In this document: piece after piece, positions 4,438 through 44,647 of the stretch
How positions within the stretch are numbered: position 1 is the first letter of the stretch
Layout: each line of letters starts with the position of its first letter
Origin: an uncultured Bacteroidota bacterium
GTDB lineage: Bacteria > Bacteroidota > Bacteroidia > AKYH767-A > JABDAW01
Length of the DNA stretch: 44,647 nt
Assembly: GCA_903844645.1 (NCBI GenBank)
Contig: CAIMUP010000069.1
Location: forward strand, 1 to 44,647
Direction: 5' to 3'
Made by a program: the position numbers and the translations under genes
Notes under the pieces: model-generated
Told to the model about the DNA's origin: nothing
Database searches by the model: none
Seen by the model: only the letters and a program-made list of their open reading frames with translations

Positions 4438-4708
4438 GTCCCTATTCCCAGCGATTATTTTTAAAAATTCGTGTTGGATCGTTTCTGTTATTTTATTAAA
4501 TAATACGATTTTTCAGTGTCGTGATGGTTTCATTCCCCAAGTTCATTCTGTAAGATTTATCCAAAATTAGCGGAAACTTTTGTCGCCTTCGCGGGCTTCC
4601 AGGAATTTTCTCCAAAGCCGGATTTCGATCTTCATTACATACCGATAAAAGTGATTAATAAGATGATATAATGCTATTTATGGGTTTTACTTCGTGGTTT
4701 AGTTTATG
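4438..4708. other. Spacer between convergent genes; no clear gene
   Basis: No convincing gene. On the minus strand a 36-codon stretch without an ATG at its head (about 4568-4675) reads like protein (LYHLINHFYRYVMKIEI) and may be a remnant or a tiny gene starting at an internal ATG. The evidence is too weak to call it. Confidence 0.4.
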
Positions 4709-4813
4709 CCAAAACGTAAACACCTTTTACCAAAACGTAAACACCTTTTACCAAAACTTAAACAAGCTTTACCAAAACTTAAACATGTTTTTCCAAAACT
4801 TAAACAGTGTTTG
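4709..4813. repeat. 21-bp tandem array, 5 units
   Basis: Five contiguous 21-bp units begin at 4709, 4730, 4751, 4772 and 4793. Each starts CCAAAAC(G/T)TAAACA and ends in a variable T-rich tail. The tail tends to complement the AAACA of its own unit (AAACATGTTT in unit 4, AAACAGTGTTT in unit 5), so each unit carries a small dyad. The array lies between the convergent rpoD and DUF5723 genes. Units do not match any other array in the window, but the period does. Confidence 0.95.
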
Positions 4814-4876
4814 AGAAAATTTCGGGTAGGTTTTATGATTTTAACCCCTGGAAAAGTTGGAGCTAATGTTATTTAA

Positions 4877-7359: not shown

Positions 7360-8187
7360 TCAACGATATATAATCTCAAGCCGTGGGTTCACAATATTGA
7401 TATTTGTTGGAAGGGCGGTATAGATATCAATATACAAAGTCTCTAACTTATGAAGCTTTGAAATGCTCGAAGGGATGGAGAGAAGGATACCGCTATGAGC
7501 CAAGTCAAGTTCCACCATAACAGTTAATTGCCCAATCTCATCAGGTAATTCGGTTAATTGATTCTTGCCGACATAAAGAAACCGAATATGTTTCCAACTG
7601 CCTATTTCTTTAGGTAAAGCAGTTAGTTGGTTTTCTTCGAGATGAACCAACTCGAGGTAACCTAACTTCCCTATTTCTGGCGGTAAATATTTAATATAGT
7701 TATACATCATATCCAATTCGCGGAGTTCAAGCAAATCGCCCAGTTCTATTGGCAGGCTATCTATCCTATTATATTTAAACGAAAGCAGCCGAAGGCTTTG
7801 CAACTTCCCTATTTCGTGGGGCAACCGCTTTAGTTTATTGGCACTTAATACTAACTCTTCGAGGTTCTCCAGATTACCGATTTCCTTAGGGAGAGAATCC
7901 AATTTGTTTTCAAATATATTCAATCGTTTCAGGTGTTTTAGCATCCCGATTTCGGGGGGAAGGGTCTTGAGGTTATTATTATTCAGATCCAATTCAACGA
8001 GATTATGCAACTTCCCAATATCCGCAGACAACTCGCTAAGATGCTGATGCCCGAGCTTTAGTTTATACACATTCATAGAATCCATCACGGCTTCGTGGAG
8101 GTTATTAAAGGTGCGCCGAAAGCTCTGTGCATGGGCAAAGTGCATTAAAAGTAGCATCATTATAAGAAACAGTTTCTTGGAATTCAT
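7360..8187 (-). CDS. Secreted leucine-rich repeat protein
   Basis: 275 residues. A signal peptide (LFLIMMLLLMHFAHAQS) is followed by about eight or nine tandem leucine-rich repeats of 23 residues with the pattern LPxEIGxLxxLxxLxLxxNxL (for example LPKEIGNLENLEELVLSANKL). The C terminus drifts from the consensus (SIPSSISKLHKLETLYID). Such LRR proteins form curved solenoids that bind partners; no catalytic domain is present. It could be a periplasmic or surface adhesion or recognition module. It lies between gatB and the lipoprotein gene without obvious coupling to either. Confidence 0.9.
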   Translation of the reverse strand: MNSKKLFLIMMLLLMHFAHAQSFRRTFNNLHEAVMDSMNVYKLKLGHQHLSELSADIGKLHNLVELDLNNNNLKTLPPEIGMLKHLKRLNIFENKLDSLPKEIGNLENLEELVLSANKLKRLPHEIGKLQSLRLLSFKYNRIDSLPIELGDLLELRELDMMYNYIKYLPPEIGKLGYLELVHLEENQLTALPKEIGSWKHIRFLYVGKNQLTELPDEIGQLTVMVELDLAHSGILLSIPSSISKLHKLETLYIDIYTALPTNINIVNPRLEIIYR

Positions 8188-8245: not shown

Positions 8246-9703
8246 CTAATATGCCAAGGCTTCGATTAACAATTTATTGGCTACTTTTGGGTCTGCTTTG
8301 CCTTTGCTTAGCTTCATCACTTCGCCCATAAACAGCCCGATTAAGCCTATTTTGCCTGCTTTATATTCCAACACTTTATCAGGATATTTCGATAGGGCTT
8401 GTTCAATGAATTCTTTCAGTGCGTGGTCATCGCTTTCTTGTATTAAATTCATCGTTTCGGCAATCGCCAGTGGCGTTTTATCTGATGAAAGAACCATCTC
8501 GGGAAACACCTTTTGCACTGCCACCGAATGGCTTATTTTTCCTTCTTCTATTAGAACGATCAGCGATGCCATGCGGGATGCGGAGACGGGGAAATCAACC
8601 ATCTCGATAGCCATTTCATTAAGATAAGATTTGATAGGTCCCATCACCATATTGGCGGCAGATTTATAGTTCGTAGTATGTTTAATTAATTCATTAAAAT
8701 AATCCGAAACCTCTTTCGCATCGGTCAAGACGGTGGCATCATAAACCGATAAATGATATTCAGAAACATACTGCTTAAACAAGGCATCGGGCAGGGTTGG
8801 GAGCTTCGCCCTTACGGTATTTATGTAGGCTTCTTTGATAATTATCGGTGGCAGATCAGGCTCTGGAAAGTACCGATAATCATTCGCCATTTCTTTGCTG
8901 CGCATTACGAAAGTGGTTCCGGCAACGGCATCGAAGCTGCGGGTATCTTGGCTGATAGAGCCGCCTGATTCGAGTTCGTCTATCTGTCGTTTTATCTCGT
9001 ATTCGATAGCCCTTTGCACGTTCCGCATAGAGTTCATATTCTTTACCTCACATCGTTTGCCGAGTTTGGTATCGCCCTTTAATCGTACTGAAACATTGGC
9101 ATCGCAGCGCATAGATCCTTCTTCTAAATTGCCATCGCAGATGTCAAGATACTTCACCAATTTCCGCATTTCGGTAACGTATTGGAACGCCTCTTCTCCG
9201 CTCCTTAATTCTGGCTCTGAAACGACCTCCAACAAAGGAACTCCGGCTCTATTCAAATCTATTAAAGAGGCAAACGGGTCTACATCGTGAATGGATTTGC
9301 CTGCATCTTCTTCCATGTGGATACGTGTTAAAGAAACCTGCTTCTCTGCGCCGTTTTTATCTTTAATCGTAAGATAGCCTCCGGTACAAATCGGGGTGGT
9401 ATCTTGCGTTATTTGATAGCCTTTGGGGAGGTCGGCATAGAAGTAATTCTTTCGGGCATATCCATTGACTTCGCGGATGTCGCAATGCAATGCCAAGCCC
9501 AGCAGTACGGCGTTTTCGACTACTTGCTTGTTCACCATCGGCAGCGTTCCGGGATGCCCTAAAGAGATGGGCGAAACATGAGAATTGGGCATGCCGCCGT
9601 AGCTTGCCGAATCCGATGAATAGGCTTTGCTTTTGGTATTTAATTGGATATGTATTTCCAATCCGATTACCGGTTCGTATTTATCGTAAATGGTTTCATT
9701 CAT
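8246..9703 (-). CDS. gatB: Asp/Glu-tRNA amidotransferase subunit B
   Basis: 485 residues, full length. GatB is the tRNA-binding and kinase-like subunit of GatCAB, which converts Glu-tRNA-Gln (or Asp-tRNA-Asn) to the amide. Hallmarks are YEPVIGLEIHIQL near the N terminus, the EDAGKS segment, DLNRAGVPLLEVVSEPE, GSMRCDANVSVR, CEVKNMNSMRNV and NDYRYFPEPDLPP, then the helical YqeY-like tail ending KVANKLLIEALAY. gatA and gatC are not adjacent. The start codon lies only 7 bases from a perfect -7 box, so the mRNA should be nearly leaderless. Confidence 0.97.
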   Translation of the reverse strand: MNETIYDKYEPVIGLEIHIQLNTKSKAYSSDSASYGGMPNSHVSPISLGHPGTLPMVNKQVVENAVLLGLALHCDIREVNGYARKNYFYADLPKGYQITQDTTPICTGGYLTIKDKNGAEKQVSLTRIHMEEDAGKSIHDVDPFASLIDLNRAGVPLLEVVSEPELRSGEEAFQYVTEMRKLVKYLDICDGNLEEGSMRCDANVSVRLKGDTKLGKRCEVKNMNSMRNVQRAIEYEIKRQIDELESGGSISQDTRSFDAVAGTTFVMRSKEMANDYRYFPEPDLPPIIIKEAYINTVRAKLPTLPDALFKQYVSEYHLSVYDATVLTDAKEVSDYFNELIKHTTNYKSAANMVMGPIKSYLNEMAIEMVDFPVSASRMASLIVLIEEGKISHSVAVQKVFPEMVLSSDKTPLAIAETMNLIQESDDHALKEFIEQALSKYPDKVLEYKAGKIGLIGLFMGEVMKLSKGKADPKVANKLLIEALAY

Positions 9704-9782: not shown

Positions 9783-10055
9783 GTATCTTGAGGAATGAAC
9801 TTGGTATCTTGAGGAATGAACTTGGAATTTCAAGTCTTCTACTTGGAATTTCAAGTCCTCAACTTGGTATTTTCAGTCCTCAACTTGGAATCTGAAGGGA
9901 AAAGTTTGGAACATTAAGCCATGAAACACGTGTTTTATGCCTTAATGTTCCAAACTTTTCCCTTGGAATTCCAAATTTAATCCTCGAAATTCCAAATTTA
10001 ATCCTTGAAATACCAAGTTCATTACATAAGATACCAAATGCAGAAGCCGAGATTC
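9783..10055. repeat. 21-bp array that inverts about its centre, 13 units
   Basis: Units begin every 21 bases from 9783 to 10035. The seven left units start G(A/T)AT or GAAC and most end ACTTG or GTTTG. The six right units start CAA and most end in ATTC or ATAC, the reverse-complement pattern. The switch falls exactly on a unit boundary (9929/9930). The innermost unit pair matches as inverse complement at 19 of 21 bases and the next at 18 of 21; outer pairs are more diverged. It occupies the gap between the O-antigen ligase stop and the gatB promoter. Confidence 0.93.
9897..9962. repeat. 66-bp near-perfect palindrome at the array centre
   Basis: Arms of 33 bases pair with only two mismatches (9919/9940 and 9923/9936). 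The centre is CACGTG with no spacer. The outer ends are GGGAAAAGTTTGG and CCAAACTTTTCCC. As RNA it would form a long hairpin with no T run, so it is not a standard terminator. As DNA it could extrude a cruciform. Confidence 0.97.
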
Positions 10056-10117: not shown

Positions 10118-11545
10118 CTATGCCGTTTCCTCTTTCTTAGCATGATAAACATCCATCGCGACAAGCATCGCAACGAAGCCCCAGAACGGAACGGAGGCTT
10201 TATCGGTATCCAAGAAATCGTTCATAATACCATGCACAAAATAAGTTATCAGCCCCAATAAAAGCCCTAAGGTAAGGAGCCGAATCTCCTTATCTTTCGC
10301 CCGAATATATAATCGCGAAGCACGATAAATAATGGCAAGAACCATAAGGATAAAAGTGAGAGCACCAATCAAACCAGAATCGGCAAGGGGCTGCAAATAT
10401 TCGCTGTGGGCATTGCCCTTGTCGCCTGCATTCGTGCTGATAATCGTCTTCTCCTTAGAATGTTGGAAAGGGGCATATTTAAAGGAATAAGTACCCGGTC
10501 CCCAGCCCAATATCGGCTTCACTTTGAACATCCGAATAGCGCAATTCCACCGGTTAATCCGTTCTACATTCGAGGCATCAGTAGAGATATTCGAGATAGA
10601 CTGAACGTGCTTCGTAATATCCGTTGATGAATCCTGATGATTGCGCTCGAGTTTCATCATAATCTGGGTTTGGAAGATAAAAAACAATACAATCGCCATC
10701 GCCACCCCACCAACGATTAGGGAGGTCTTCACTCGGAATAAAAAAATCAGATAAACAGCAACCGCCACAGCTAATCCGATCCATGCCGCACGGGTATAAG
10801 AAAGATAAAGAGCTACGGCAAACAAACAAGTGATGAAAAAAGCGAAGATGCGCGTAATAGCGGTGTATTTCGCATTAAATATAAACCCGATAAAGACAGG
10901 AACAAACAGACAAATAACAGCTGCATAAGCGGTATGATCGTTATAAAAAGGGCTCATCACCCATATCGCAGAACGCTCCCCAAAACCAAAGGTGGAATGC
11001 CGGTAAATAGTGTAAAAAATAACGAGAATAAGGGAGCTGGTATAAATCCAAATGAACTTCTTAATATTGTGATAATTGAAGAACAATTGCGTCGCCAAAA
11101 AGTAGAATGAAGTAACAAACCAGAGCCTCGAAAGGAAGAACTTAAACGACACCACGGGCAAGGTACTACTGATACAGGTAATGAACATCCAAGCGAGGTT
11201 GAGAATCAGGAAAATAGTTACCGGATGATTAATAATTCGTTTGTCGAAGGTCCTTTCATAGATCAATTTCGCGAAGAAAATTATCATCAAACCAAACATA
11301 AGCGGCTCGACCGGCAGGCTTAGTCCTAAGTTGAACTCGCTATTCTTTAAGTTAATAGCAAGCGGTGTCATGAAGACCACAATGAACATTAAAATATCTA
11401 TCGAAAAGATGGCTAAAACAACAATTAATAAAGCCATCGGCAGTAACGGAAACCAGTAGAATTCATTAGCCAGGAAGATTACATTCAGCACGATGAAAAG
11501 CGCACTTATTCCGTACAGCCAACGAAGTTTTATTTGATGAATCAT
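10118..11545 (-). CDS. O-antigen ligase/polymerase family membrane protein (Wzy_C)
   Basis: 475 residues with about 10-12 hydrophobic spans. The large periplasmic loop carries the Wzy/WaaL signature region: GWGPGTYSFKYAPF, then NAHSEYLQPLADSGLIGA, with the conserved H-S-E. Members either ligate undecaprenyl-linked O-antigen to lipid A core or polymerise repeat units; sequence alone does not decide which. It starts 21 bases after the stop of the second Wzz-like gene and is probably the last gene of a three-gene transcript promoted at 13680-13687. No glycosyltransferase or flippase lies beside it. Confidence 0.88.
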   Translation of the reverse strand: MIHQIKLRWLYGISALFIVLNVIFLANEFYWFPLLPMALLIVVLAIFSIDILMFIVVFMTPLAINLKNSEFNLGLSLPVEPLMFGLMIIFFAKLIYERTFDKRIINHPVTIFLILNLAWMFITCISSTLPVVSFKFFLSRLWFVTSFYFLATQLFFNYHNIKKFIWIYTSSLILVIFYTIYRHSTFGFGERSAIWVMSPFYNDHTAYAAVICLFVPVFIGFIFNAKYTAITRIFAFFITCLFAVALYLSYTRAAWIGLAVAVAVYLIFLFRVKTSLIVGGVAMAIVLFFIFQTQIMMKLERNHQDSSTDITKHVQSISNISTDASNVERINRWNCAIRMFKVKPILGWGPGTYSFKYAPFQHSKEKTIISTNAGDKGNAHSEYLQPLADSGLIGALTFILMVLAIIYRASRLYIRAKDKEIRLLTLGLLLGLITYFVHGIMNDFLDTDKASVPFWGFVAMLVAMDVYHAKKEETA

Positions 11546-13853: not shown

Positions 13854-13887
13854 AAAATTTTAACTAAAAACCCACATTCTCCAAAAT
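13854..13887 (+). repeat. Array leader, copy 1
   Basis: AAAATTTTAACTAAAAA, then CCCACAT, then CT and AAAAT, ending where the first 21-bp unit begins. The same block, with one extra A and small differences, precedes the unrelated array at 36407. Finding it in front of two arrays with different units suggests it belongs to the element rather than to either neighbouring gene. Confidence 0.75.
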
Positions 13888-14053
13888 GGGCGATAAACTC
13901 GACCACATGGGCGATAAACTAACACGCATGGGCGATAATCTAACACACATGGGCGATAAACTCGAACACATGGGCAATAAACTCGACCACATGGGCGATA
14001 AACTCGACCACATGGACGATAAACTCGACCACATGGGCAATAATCTCTCCGCC
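13886..14053 (+). repeat. 21-bp tandem array, 8 units
   Basis: Units start at 13886 and every 21 bases to 14033, each beginning ATGG(G/A)C(G/A)ATAA and usually ending CTCGACCAC. Changes cluster at a few sites (GCGAT or GCAAT; CTCGACCAC or CTAACACGC). One frame encodes heptads such as MGDKLDH, but the frame has no gene-like start or end. It lies in the divergent gap between the wzz unit and accC. Confidence 0.95.
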
Positions 14054-14072
14054 GGTCAGGATTTGCAATCCC
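14054..14072 (+). repeat. REP-like motif GGTCAGGATTTGCAATCCC
   Basis: It follows the last unit of the array at 13886 directly. GGATT pairs with AATCC around a short loop. Confidence 0.55.
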
Positions 14073-14094: not shown

Positions 14095-14312
14095 TTATGG
14101 CGCGTCCCCGGCTGCCTCCCACCAAAGTCCCCACCAAATGGCAGCCACGGTCGGGCTGTTCGGGGGTACCGTACCTGCCTGCCACCAGAAAAGTCCCCAC
14201 CAAAAGGCAGGCACCAAGCCCCTACCATCCCTCGCGCAGCAGACGACCCAGTCCATAAACCACACAAGCATCCTGACAAACAATCGCCCCTTCGCGATTT
14301 CCTGTCAGGTTG
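14095..14312 (+). repeat. Structured dispersed repeat, copy 1
   Basis: About 218 bases beginning TTATGGCGCGTCCCCGGC and ending TTTCCTGTCAGGTTG. It matches 35989-36256 in the same orientation, with many blocks identical (GGCAGCCACGGTC, CGGGGGTACCG, CAAGCCCCTACCATCCCTCG, CCCCTTCGCGATTTCCTGT). It contains an internal near-duplication of CCCCACCAAA(A/T)GGCAG. It is G+C-rich compared with its surroundings. The minus strand is open in two frames (GLVPAFWWGLF and similar), but this appears to be a by-product. It is not recognisable as an IS or a known RNA family. Confidence 0.85.
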
Positions 14313-14313
14313 C
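14268..14313 (+). ncRNA. Hairpin at the 3' end of the dispersed repeat, copy 1
   Basis: The outer stem GCATCCTGACA pairs with TGTCAGGTTGC (one T/T mismatch). A symmetric 3x3 internal loop follows, then an inner stem AATCGC/GCGATT and a CCCTTC loop. The copy at 36208 keeps the same architecture with a partly different outer stem. It is structured as DNA or RNA; transcription is not shown. Confidence 0.5.
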
Positions 14314-14323
14314 ATTCAATATT

Positions 14324-14806
14324 CCAAGTTACGACCAATGAAATCCAAGTTACGACGAATGAAATTGAAGTTACGACGAATGAAATTGAAGTTACGACGA
14401 ATGAAATCCAAGTTACGACCAATGAAATTCAAGTTACGACGAACATATTCCAAGTTACGACGAACATATTCCAAGTTACGACGAACATATTCCAAGTTAC
14501 GACCAACATATTCCAAGTTACGACCAACATATTCCAAGTTACGACCAACATATTCTAAGTTACGACCAACATATTCTAAGTTACGACCAACATATTCCAA
14601 GTTACGACGAACATATTCTAAGTTACGACCAACATATTCCAAGTTACGACGAACATATTCTAAGTTACGACCAACATATTCCAAAACCAAACGACAATAT
14701 ATTCAAGCCAAACGACAATATATACAAGCCAAACGACAATATCCCAAAACCCAACGAACATATTTCAAAACCCAACGAAGGTATTTAATAAAACGTAACG
14801 AACTTT
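14324..14806 (+). repeat. 21-bp tandem array, 23 units, two unit families in one register
   Basis: Seventeen units (14324-14680) share AAGTTACGAC(C/G)AA. The first five mostly continue TGAAAT and the later ones CATATT. From 14681 the units change to AAACGACAATAT or CCCAACGAACATATT forms but keep the 21-base step to 14785, with a sixth degenerate unit ending at 14806. The array ends 3 bases before the accC -7 box, so accC's upstream promoter region is built from array DNA. Confidence 0.95.
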
Positions 14807-20087: not shown

Positions 20088-20172
20088 TTTCTCTTATTTT
20101 AATTGTTATATTTAATTTTTATTAATTGTAGCATGTTGTAATACCTTGCAAAACTAAATCGCTTAGACCCTT

Positions 20173-20592
20173 GCAATACTTTGTGGAGGTATAAATTTTT
20201 TCGCCGATACCGTTGCAATACCTTGCGAGGGTATAAGTTTTTTCGCCGATACCATTGCAATACCTTGCGGGGGTATAAGTTTTTTCGCGGATAGCGTTGC
20301 AATACCTTGCAGGGGTATAAATTTTTTCGCGGATACCGTTGTATTGTTTTACAAGGGTGTAATTTATTTCGCTCATATCGATATTCAACCTTGTTTCGGT
20401 AGAATTTTTACTCCTTATATATAGGGTCGAACAAGACCATGCTTTATTTAATGTACTATAAGTAGTGGTCGAACAAGACCGTGTTTTATTTAATCTATTA
20501 TAAGGAGTGGTCGAACAAGACCATGTTTTATTTAATGTACTAAAACAGAAGTTCGTTCCTGCATCAGGCAAACAATTTTCGGGGACTACTTT
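20173..20592. repeat. 42-bp (2 x 21) tandem array with two unit families in one register
   Basis: Ten steps of 42 bases from 20173. The first four units contain GCAATAC(C/T)TTG, a GGTATAA element and TTTTTTCGC; ATACC/GGTAT form a dyad in most. Degenerate units follow at 20341 and 20383. From 20425 three units start GGTCGAACAAGACC, itself a GGTC/GACC dyad, followed by TTTTATTTAAT or CTTTATTTAAT. A decayed unit starts at 20551. The change of family occurs without loss of the 42-base step. A 159-codon minus ORF crosses the array (20122-20601), but its repeat content makes coding doubtful. Confidence 0.93.
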
Positions 20593-30260: not shown

Positions 30261-30364
30261 GCAAGAATATTTGTAATCAGAATCCTTTTATCAATTATTT
30301 AACAGGAATTAACTTAAATGCGAATTCCGACACTGGTAATTTCCTTGATACCGAGACCTCTTGA

Positions 30365-30637
30365 AGCGTCAGGTGACCTCATCGGGTGTTTGAGAGACCT
30401 CATCGAGTGTTTGAGAGACCTCATCAAGTGTTTGAGAGACCTCATCGAGTGTTTGAGAGACCTCATCGACACTTTGAGAGACCTCATCGAGTGTTTGAGA
30501 GACCTCATCGAGTGTTTGAGAGACCTCATCGGGTGTTTGAGAGACCTCATCAAGTGTTTGAGAGACCTCATCGAGTGTTTGAGAGACCTCATCGAGTGTT
30601 TGAGAGACCTCATCGAGTGTTTGAGAGACCTCATCGA
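30365..30637. repeat. 21-bp tandem array, 13 units
   Basis: The first, partial unit is at 30365; twelve near-identical units run from 30386 to 30637. The invariant core is TTTGAGAGACCTCATC and almost all variation is in one triplet after it (GAG, AAG, GGG or GAC). TGAG and CTCA form a dyad around AGAC. Both strands stay open across the array, giving false ORFs of over 100 codons. It sits in the divergent gap between the LolA-like gene and the epimerase gene. Confidence 0.97.
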
Positions 30638-30757
30638 CTACTATTGCCTATTTTAAGACTGAATGATAAGAAAACAGGTGATAGTATCGAAATCATCAAA
30701 AACAACCGTATTCCTTCCATTATTACCTCGCCACAGAATGCCAAACAAGCCAAATAA

Positions 30758-36422: not shown

Positions 36423-36595
36423 ATAGCATCACAGTGAGTTTGTATAGCAAATAATCCAATTTGTACCCCACCAAATCACATTCATACCCCACCAAATCAC
36501 ATTCATACCCCACCAAATCCAATTCATAGAGCAAATAATCCAGTTTGTACCCCACCGAATCGCATTCACACCCCACCGAAATACTCTTATAGAAA
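36407..36595 (+). repeat. 21-bp tandem array, 9 units, two alternating unit types
   Basis: Units begin every 21 bases from 36407. One type starts AAATAATCCA(A/G)TTTGTA and the other ACC(A/G)AATC(A/G)CATTCA; they alternate in blocks, joined by CCCC or AGC ends. The order suggests duplication of a multi-unit block. It ends 32 bases before the NrnA -7 box. Confidence 0.93.
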
Positions 36596-39525: not shown

Positions 39526-39588
39526 CCGCTTTCAGAAGGTTTGATATGGTTTATTCAGAAACGAAAAATCAAAAGAGGTCAAAAAATC

Positions 39589-39840
39589 TTTAAAGATTCG
39601 TTTCATATCTTTAAAGATCCGTTTCATATCTTTAAAGATTCGTTTCATATCTTTAAAGATCCGTTTCACATCTTTAAAGATTCGTTTCATATCTTTAAAG
39701 ATTCGTTTCACATCTTTAAAGATTCGTTTCACATCTTTAATGATTCGTTTCATATCTTTAAAGATTCGTTTCACATCTTTAAAGATTCGTTTCACATCTT
39801 TAAAGATCCGTAACGAACTTTTAAAGATTTTTCGGTATCT
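39589..39840. repeat. 21-bp tandem array, 12 units, each with a 12-bp palindrome
   Basis: Ten close units from 39589 to 39798 repeat TTTAAAGAT(T/C)CGTTTCA(T/C)ATC; two decayed units follow in register to 39840. Each junction creates ATCTTTAAAGAT, a perfect 12-bp palindrome spaced every 21 bases; one unit has a T instead of an A in it (AATGAT). Variation is confined mainly to two C/T sites. It lies between two plus-strand genes. Confidence 0.97.
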
Positions 39841-44253: not shown

Positions 44254-44300
44254 TCATTCCCCAAAACACGACCCCTCGAAATGCCGATTTTGGCTGTTGT

Positions 44301-44647
44301 TTTGGGAAAGTTGGGTGTTGATTGGGAAAAGCAGAAGGTCTCTTGGGAAAAGCAGAAGGGCTCTTGGGGAAAGCAGAAGGACTCTTGGGGAAAGCAGAAG
44401 GGCTCTTGGGGAGACCAAAGTTTCAACGTGGGTGACTAGAGTTAAAGGTGGGGTGACTGGAGTTAAAGGTGGGGTGACTGGAGTTAAAGGTGGGATGACT
44501 GGAGTTAAAGGTGGGATGACCGGAGTTAAAGGTGGGATGACCGGAGTTAAAGGTGGGATGACCGGAGTTAAAGGTGGGATGACCGGAGTTAAAGGTGGGA
44601 TGACCGGAGTTAAAGGTGGGATGACTAGAGTTAAAGGTGGGATGACC
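44301..44647. repeat. 21-bp tandem array with two unit families, running off the window
   Basis: From 44301 units step by 21. Four or five contain TTGGG(A/G)AAAGCAGAAGG(G/T/A)CTC (44322-44405), one is transitional (44406), and from 44427 the units become GGTG(A)CTAGAGTTAAAG and then GTGGGATGACCGGAGTTAAA forms. The register does not shift at the change. GGT and ACC form a dyad in the second family. The array continues past the window end. Confidence 0.95.

What the first reader, a model, noticed from the sequence alone, without database searches (positions are those of the whole stretch)
9783..10055. An array that inverts at its centre without losing the 21-bp register
Thirteen units, seven in one orientation and six in the other, meet exactly at a unit boundary (9929/9930). 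Inner unit pairs are near-perfect inverse complements (19/21, then 18/21), and outer pairs are more diverged. Tandem slippage cannot invert units; this points to hairpin-templated growth or strand switching during replication that extends in 21-base steps, with the youngest copies in the middle.
Basis: partly seen in the sequence, partly recalled or inferred. Interest (0 to 1): 0.8.

Follow-up and report, generated by a model that had tools for sequence, protein, structure and literature searches.

The report
Mirrored 21-bp repeat array around CACGTG
A soil or freshwater bacterial lineage fills most of its long gaps between genes with repeats that are always 21 letters long but spelled differently in each gap, and this one is a rarer mirrored form in which the repeats run outward in both directions from the palindrome CAC|GTG, a design seen again in its sister species.

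Summary
The array is real and mirrored: 7+6 units of 21 bp about a dyad at 9929/9930, inner mirror pairs 19/21 and 18/21. Beyond the two inner units the arms are inverse runs of one unit family, but their unit order is no better than permuted, so the arms were not copied unit by unit. Two larger facts emerged. (1) The genome carries about one array per 4 kb with period 21 or 42 bp, none at 20 or 22; unit sequences are private to each array, and 51 of 63 intergenic gaps of 300 bp or more hold one. Two same-genus genomes have them too; sampled genomes outside the genus essentially do not. (2) Seven of eight single-dyad, gap-free mirrored arrays found in the genus have the centre CAC|GTG, in at least three unrelated arm families from three species; four homologous copies here keep one 21-bp phase from the dyad. 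Best explanation: outward arrays turn over in a fixed 21-nt step from a CAC|GTG palindrome whose hairpin is kept palindromic by template switching or selection. Coding, restriction avoidance and assembly artefact are disfavoured. What sets 21 bp, and why CAC|GTG, is unknown.

The parts
9783..9929 (-). left arm: seven 21-bp units, reading outward from the dyad on the minus strand
9930..10055 (+). right arm: six 21-bp units reading outward on the plus strand (the last one, 10035-10055, weak)
9927..9932 (.). CAC|GTG dyad centre, shared with mirrored arrays at G000:C113, C58, C8, C52, G002:C43, G001:C19 and C107
9909..9950 (.). central unit pair GAACATTAAGCCATGAAACAC|GTGTTTTATGCCTTAATGTTC, conserved in the four homologous loci of this genome
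9895..9964 (.). near-perfect central hairpin predicted for single-stranded DNA (-28.7 kcal/mol for the 84-mer, z -11.4)
9783..9824 (-). left units 6 and 7, identical to each other (local unit duplication) and 18/21 to right unit 5
10014..10034 (+). right unit 5, inverse partner of left units 6 and 7
8246..9703 (-). gatB, starting beyond the left end of the array
10118..11545 (-). Wzy_C (O-antigen ligase-like) gene, ending beyond the right end of the array
4693..4824 (.). other 21-bp array of the window, own unit
13873..14063 (.). other 21-bp array, own unit
14312..14796 (.). other 21-bp array, own unit
20151..20558 (.). two 42-bp-period arrays
30360..30653 (.). other 21-bp array, own unit
36436..36582 (.). 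other 21-bp array, own unit
39569..39834 (.). other 21-bp array whose unit contains the palindrome ATCTTTAAAGAT
44290..44647 (.). other 21-bp arrays, running to the contig end

Best explanation
The feature is a mirrored member of a genus-wide system of intergenic arrays whose unit length is fixed at 21 bp (or 42) while the unit sequence is private to each array. Two outward-facing runs of one unit family start at a CAC|GTG palindrome. Shown: the lattice, the inversion, the shared centre, the common phase from the dyad in four homologous copies, and the higher mirror identity near the centre. Inferred: each arm gains and loses units by tandem turnover in fixed 21-nt steps, set by some ruler that is not sequence (21 bp is two helical turns); the central 40-60 bp stay palindromic because the strand folds into a hairpin and template switching copies one arm onto the other (arm homogenisation and spacer inversion, known for quasi-palindromes), perhaps with added selection on the CAC|GTG site.
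For: Strict period: in 383 kb of own genome 86 segments at best period 21 and 27 at 42, none at 20 or 22; 97 arrays there and 61 in a further 270 kb. Units private: pairwise similarity equals shuffles except for a handful of pairs, mostly arrays at contig ends. Genus-wide: 82 arrays in 488 kb of G001, 50 in 433 kb of G002, against 1 in 250 kb of other Bacteroidia and none at 21/42 in 89 kb of G003, same family. Excess dyad symmetry inside units, z about 7; 13 of 14 long palindromes lie in arrays, 0 in controls. Single units inverted inside otherwise direct arrays at L096 8753 and L092 6712, next to inverted unit ends, as spacer inversion predicts (mechanism PMC8604942). Unit 1 is closer to its mirror (18.1/21) than to its neighbour (11.1/21) over seven arrays. 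Common phase, common CAC|GTG. Whole-array gain or loss: own L095 3257-3483 against a 1-bp gene-to-gene gap in G001:C178.
Against: Turnover is not seen happening: two copies of a different mirrored array (G000:C62 and C30) differ by 13% in sequence but have the same number of units, so it is slow or constrained. No 21-nt mutational ruler is known to me and no enzyme was identified. At this locus the outer-unit order gives no support for hairpin copying of whole arms. Template switching alone does not explain why the centre is CAC|GTG in unrelated arrays.
Confidence: 0.5

Rival explanations
1. Binding array: the dyad and the units are sites for a DNA-binding protein. A dimer sits on CAC|GTG and further copies bind outward every two helical turns on the same face, like an iteron or ParB-type array; selection keeps spacing and centre.
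For: CAC|GTG recurs at the centre of unrelated arrays; units start exactly at the dyad; in G001:C19 GAGG is kept every 21 bp for five to seven units per arm although the rest has diverged; column variation inside units is clustered; unit numbers unchanged between two copies 13% apart; 21 bp is two turns.
Against: Unit sequences are unrelated between arrays, so one sequence-specific protein cannot read them all; parS itself absent from loci held; no candidate protein identified.
Confidence: 0.25
2. Dispersed mobile element: the mirrored array is a MITE-like element that was copied to four places.
For: C69, C113, C58 and C8 share centre and arm family; C58 and C8 share 88 bp at 82%; another mirrored array exists as a 481-bp duplicate.
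Against: Copies share little beyond the core; no terminal inverted repeat or target duplication noticed; arms in other species are unrelated while the centre is the same; no dedicated transposase found (RAYT only as a partial match).
Confidence: 0.12
3. One-off fold-back: a single strand switch inverted an ordinary array here and the rest is neutral decay.
For: Centre is the best-paired part; fold-back is a known event.
Against: Four homologous loci with one centre and phase and the same CAC|GTG in sister species; first unit begins GTG whereas the other units of each array begin otherwise, which a fold-back at a unit boundary would not leave.
Confidence: 0.07
4. Transcription device: the hairpin acts as a bidirectional terminator or RNA stabiliser between wzy and gatB.
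For: Very stable fold; lies between the end of one gene and the upstream region of the next.
Against: No T-run at the hairpin; arrays occur in divergent, tandem and convergent gaps alike; does not explain the 21-bp rule.
Confidence: 0.06

Closest known systems
BrickBuilt minisatellite/MITE of Porphyromonas gingivalis (PMC4596501)
   Same: Bacteroidota; always intergenic; head-to-tail units of about two-turn size without spacers; inverted elements at the ends
   Different: BrickBuilt has one 23-nt unit found 19 times, with leader and tail; here each array has its own unit, roughly 900 arrays are expected by extrapolation, the period is 21/42, and the mirrored form has a central CAC|GTG dyad
Quasi-palindrome template-switch mutagenesis (PMC8604942; PMC7202029)
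   Same: Homogenises imperfect inverted-repeat arms and inverts the spacer; fits the near-perfect centres and the single inverted units
   Different: Does not set a 21-nt step, does not make arrays, does not choose CAC|GTG
Intergenic TAACTGA heptamer direct repeats of Beggiatoaceae, Cyanobacteria and some Bacteroidetes (PMC4679880)
   Same: Genome-wide intergenic direct repeats, also in some Bacteroidetes
   Different: One fixed 7-nt sequence; here the length is fixed and the sequence free
Iteron origins and parS/ParB sites (own knowledge)
   Same: Oriented sites about two helical turns apart; parS has a CACGTG core
   Different: Hundreds of chromosomal loci; centre flanks differ from parS; no replication or partition gene next to this array
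REP/BIME elements with RAYT transposases (own knowledge)
   Same: Intergenic palindromic repeats, sometimes in alternating orientation
   Different: No shared unit sequence; the RAYT domain family gives only one partial match in this genome

Membership tests
BrickBuilt MITE | the same 23-nt unit at all copies | tested here: not met
   period 21, units private to arrays
BrickBuilt MITE | intergenic location | tested here: met
MITE in general | terminal inverted repeats, target-site duplication, several near-identical copies | tested here: inconclusive
   four diverged copies sharing mainly the core; no TIR or duplication noticed by reading the edges; no empty site for this array available
parS | TGTTTCACGTGAAACA | tested here: not met
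   exact word absent from loci held; centre here is GAAACACGTGTTTT; the G002:C43 centre TTTTTCACGTGAAAAA is two mismatches away
REP/RAYT | genome-encoded RAYT (Y1_Tnp) protein | tested here: inconclusive
   one partial hit in G000, E 1.6e-12, positions 5-84 of 121
CRISPR array | repeats separated by unique spacers | tested here: not met
   units lie head to tail without spacers
intrinsic terminator | hairpin followed by a run of T | tested here: not met
   no such site at the array
described RNA family | Rfam match at gathering score | tested here: not met
   none in the window
quasi-palindrome template-switch site | imperfect inverted repeat | tested here: met
quasi-palindrome template-switch site | arm homogenisation or spacer inversion seen between ancestor and descendant | not testable with these tools
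   no close relative of this locus is held; single inverted units elsewhere are suggestive only

The most novel reading that the evidence does not exclude
This genus has a dedicated machine or physical constraint that builds and maintains intergenic arrays with a 21-nt ruler independent of sequence, and CAC|GTG is its nucleation or recognition site for outward growth or loading in both directions; the mirrored arrays are the complete form of the element.
Probability: 0.3. Interest if true: 0.92.

Novelty: new variant of a known kind. Interest (0 to 1): 0.75.

Why it matters
Known bacterial minisatellites repeat a sequence; here the conserved thing is a length. Several hundred to a thousand unrelated arrays (extrapolated from about 650 kb of this genome) with one exact period imply a 21-nt ruler in replication, repair or chromosome packing that ordinary slippage does not provide. 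The mirrored arrays give that system a possible starting point, CAC|GTG, and make it testable: change the centre, or find what binds it. The arrays also lie at many contig ends and create spurious open reading frames, which matters for assembling and annotating such genomes.

Tried and rejected
Coding repeats (7-residue frame): no codon-position signal, 8 of 70 arrays without any open frame. Restriction avoidance of CACGTG as reason for the centre: 12 observed, 14.3 expected. Canonical parS. RAYT/REP. Rfam RNAs. A motif common to all arrays (unit similarity at chance) or to unrelated CAC|GTG arrays. Strict unit-by-unit mirroring. Synteny: gatB and wzy lie on different contigs in both relatives, so there is no orthologous empty site for this array. 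MAFFT alignment of six centres came out gapped and was not used for a model. Covariance model R1 mostly finds any long hairpin; its hits were sorted by layout afterwards. Literature searches found no description of length-locked private arrays; only open-access text is held.

Full report
WHAT WAS CLAIMED. Thirteen 21-bp units at 9783-10055, seven in one orientation and six in the other, meeting at 9929/9930; inner pairs nearly perfect; grown by hairpin templating, youngest in the middle.

CHECK. The sequence and the repeat finder show the two arrays and a 113-nt inverted repeat without spacer. Mirror pairs outward from the centre score 19, 18, 13, 15, 13, 12 and 5 of 21. Outside the central 66 bp the arms still pair far above shuffles (64/114 against 31.5 +/- 4.7), so the inversion is not limited to the centre. 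The mirror order is: permuting the right-hand units does as well for units 3-6 (p=1.0), and a duplication-tolerant alignment of the outer units gives p=0.58. The arms are two outward runs of one unit family, not copies of each other unit by unit. Left units 6 and 7 are identical and match right unit 5 at 18/21. The stretch folds as RNA at -122.5 kcal/mol, z -14; the central 84 bases fold as DNA into a near-perfect hairpin from 9895 to 9964.

CONTEXT. The array lies between gatB (start side) and a Wzy_C gene (end side), both on the minus strand. The window belongs to a 3.84-Mb draft genome. Two same-genus genomes are held: G001 contains a contig with the length of CAIWCG010000214.1 (Umea1 MAG) and G002 one with the length of JABDAW010000013.1 (MAG BWOrgHeat_Nextera81_MAG6). 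In both, gatB and the wzy-like gene lie on different contigs.

THE LARGER SYSTEM. The window alone has about ten arrays with period 21 or 42. In 383 kb of this genome 97 arrays were found (4.9% of bases) and in a further 270 kb 61 (4.7%); G001 has 82 in 488 kb and G002 50 in 433 kb. A few of the first 21 stretches were picked because they matched the query; the second own set was picked by contig number only. The best period of 86 segments is 21 and of 27 is 42, with none at 20 or 22. Controls: one array in 250 kb of other Bacteroidia and none at 21/42 in 89 kb of the nearest other genus. Unit sequences are unrelated between arrays: pairwise similarity matches shuffled units except for a handful of pairs, mostly arrays at contig ends. 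Arrays occupy 51 of 63 gaps of 300 bp or longer and none of 160 gaps under 100 bp, in all gene orientations (genes approximated by long ORFs). They are not coding: variation has no codon-position bias. One orthologous gap holds only 1 bp in G001 and an array of about nine units here. Units have excess dyad symmetry (z about 7); long palindromes are concentrated in arrays, 13 of 14, with none in controls; single units can be inverted inside direct arrays without shifting the lattice (L096 8753, L092 6712).

THE MIRRORED CLASS. Searching the genome with this array returned other loci that proved to be mirrored too. Laid out from the dyad, C69 (this one), C113, C58 and C8 share a centre close to CATTAAGGCAYGAAACAC|GTGTTTCRTGCCTTAATG. 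Their arms share one phase: identity between arms of different loci is about 0.42 at offsets 0 and +/-21 and mostly 0.21-0.31 elsewhere. A fifth, C52, has CAC|GTG with other arms, and so do G002:C43 (unit TCAGTAAACTCCTATATTCAT) and G001:C19 and C107 (units beginning GAGG or GAAG). A scan that does not use the centre sequence gives eight single-dyad gap-free mirrored arrays in 1.57 Mb of genus sequence, seven of them with CAC|GTG (single-dyad status judged from the neighbour-dyad scores). Of the seven, C113, C58, C8 and G002:C43 lie in stretches fetched because they had matched this array or its model; G001:C19 and C107 do not. In each array the first unit begins GTG whereas the other units begin CAA, TTG, AGA, CGC, TCA or GAG/GAA, so CAC|GTG is not what a fold-back at a unit boundary would leave. 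Unrelated arms share no motif. Pooled over seven arrays the mirror identity falls outward (18.1 to 8.0 of 21), and unit 1 is closer to its mirror than to its neighbour (18.1 against 11.1). Two copies of a different mirrored array (centre GTG-t-CAC; C62 and C30) differ by 13% but have the same number of units, so turnover is not fast.

INTERPRETATION. Shown: a length-locked, sequence-free array system in one genus; a mirrored class with a recurrent CAC|GTG centre; central homogeneity with independent outer arms. Inferred: arms turn over in 21-nt steps by an unknown ruler (two helical turns); the centre is kept palindromic by hairpin template switching, a known process that homogenises arms and inverts spacers (PMC8604942), and possibly by selection on the site. 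Main rival: a protein that binds the dyad and phased units. The evidence does not separate these two.

KNOWN RELATIVES. BrickBuilt of P. gingivalis is nearest in anatomy but repeats one 23-nt unit; TAACTGA heptamer arrays repeat one sequence. None of the papers found describes fixed length with free sequence; only open-access text was searched. Remarks on helical turns, iterons, parS and REP elements are from my own knowledge.

LIMITS. Draft genomes and sampled stretches; C52 and G002:C43 were found with a model that contained the centre; orientation of units 3-5 is partly ambiguous because their core is itself palindromic; the expected number of arrays per genome is an extrapolation; no strain-level data.

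Noticed in passing
window 14301 and 36216; L086 3508 and 3827; L096 404; L215 4369-4406 and 5242-5279: A dispersed hairpin element like ATCCTGACAGGCAATCGCCCCTTCGCGATTTCCTGTCAGGTTG (about 2 x 21 bp): CCTGWCAGG occurs 23 times in 653 kb, 18 of them within 250 bp of an array although only 15% of the sequence is that near; 1 in 250 kb of controls.
   Followed up: partly
L096 7957-8077: Another palindromic element with arms of about 37 bp, matching more than 20 places in G001 and G002 on both strands; not a 21-bp array.
   Followed up: no
G000:C62 17831-18309 and G000:C30 12667-13145: A 481-bp duplicate holding a different mirrored array (centre GTG-t-CAC, units CACA...TGTGA); 87% identical, number of units unchanged.
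   Followed up: partly
L095 3218-3553 against G001:C178 5540-5611: An array present in this species and absent between the same two genes in the sister species, flanked here by a short inverted repeat TGATGGAA/TTCCATCA.
   Followed up: partly
L082 10485-10550: Perfect hairpin ending in GCAGATCGGAAG, which contains the start of a common sequencing adapter (AGATCGGAAG, from memory); natural terminator or assembly contamination.
   Followed up: no
window 7360-8187 (-): Leucine-rich-repeat protein next to gatB.
   Followed up: no
contig ends of G000, e.g. C17 end and C1 start, C9 end and C13 start: Many contigs end inside 21-bp arrays and units at different contig ends match, so the arrays probably break the assembly.
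   Followed up: partly
L086 3511-3840, L096 8711-8983, L086 16731-16982: Some direct arrays are enclosed by inverted flanking repeats; matches of score 24 or more in 7% of arrays against 0.4% of mismatched flanks.
   Followed up: partly
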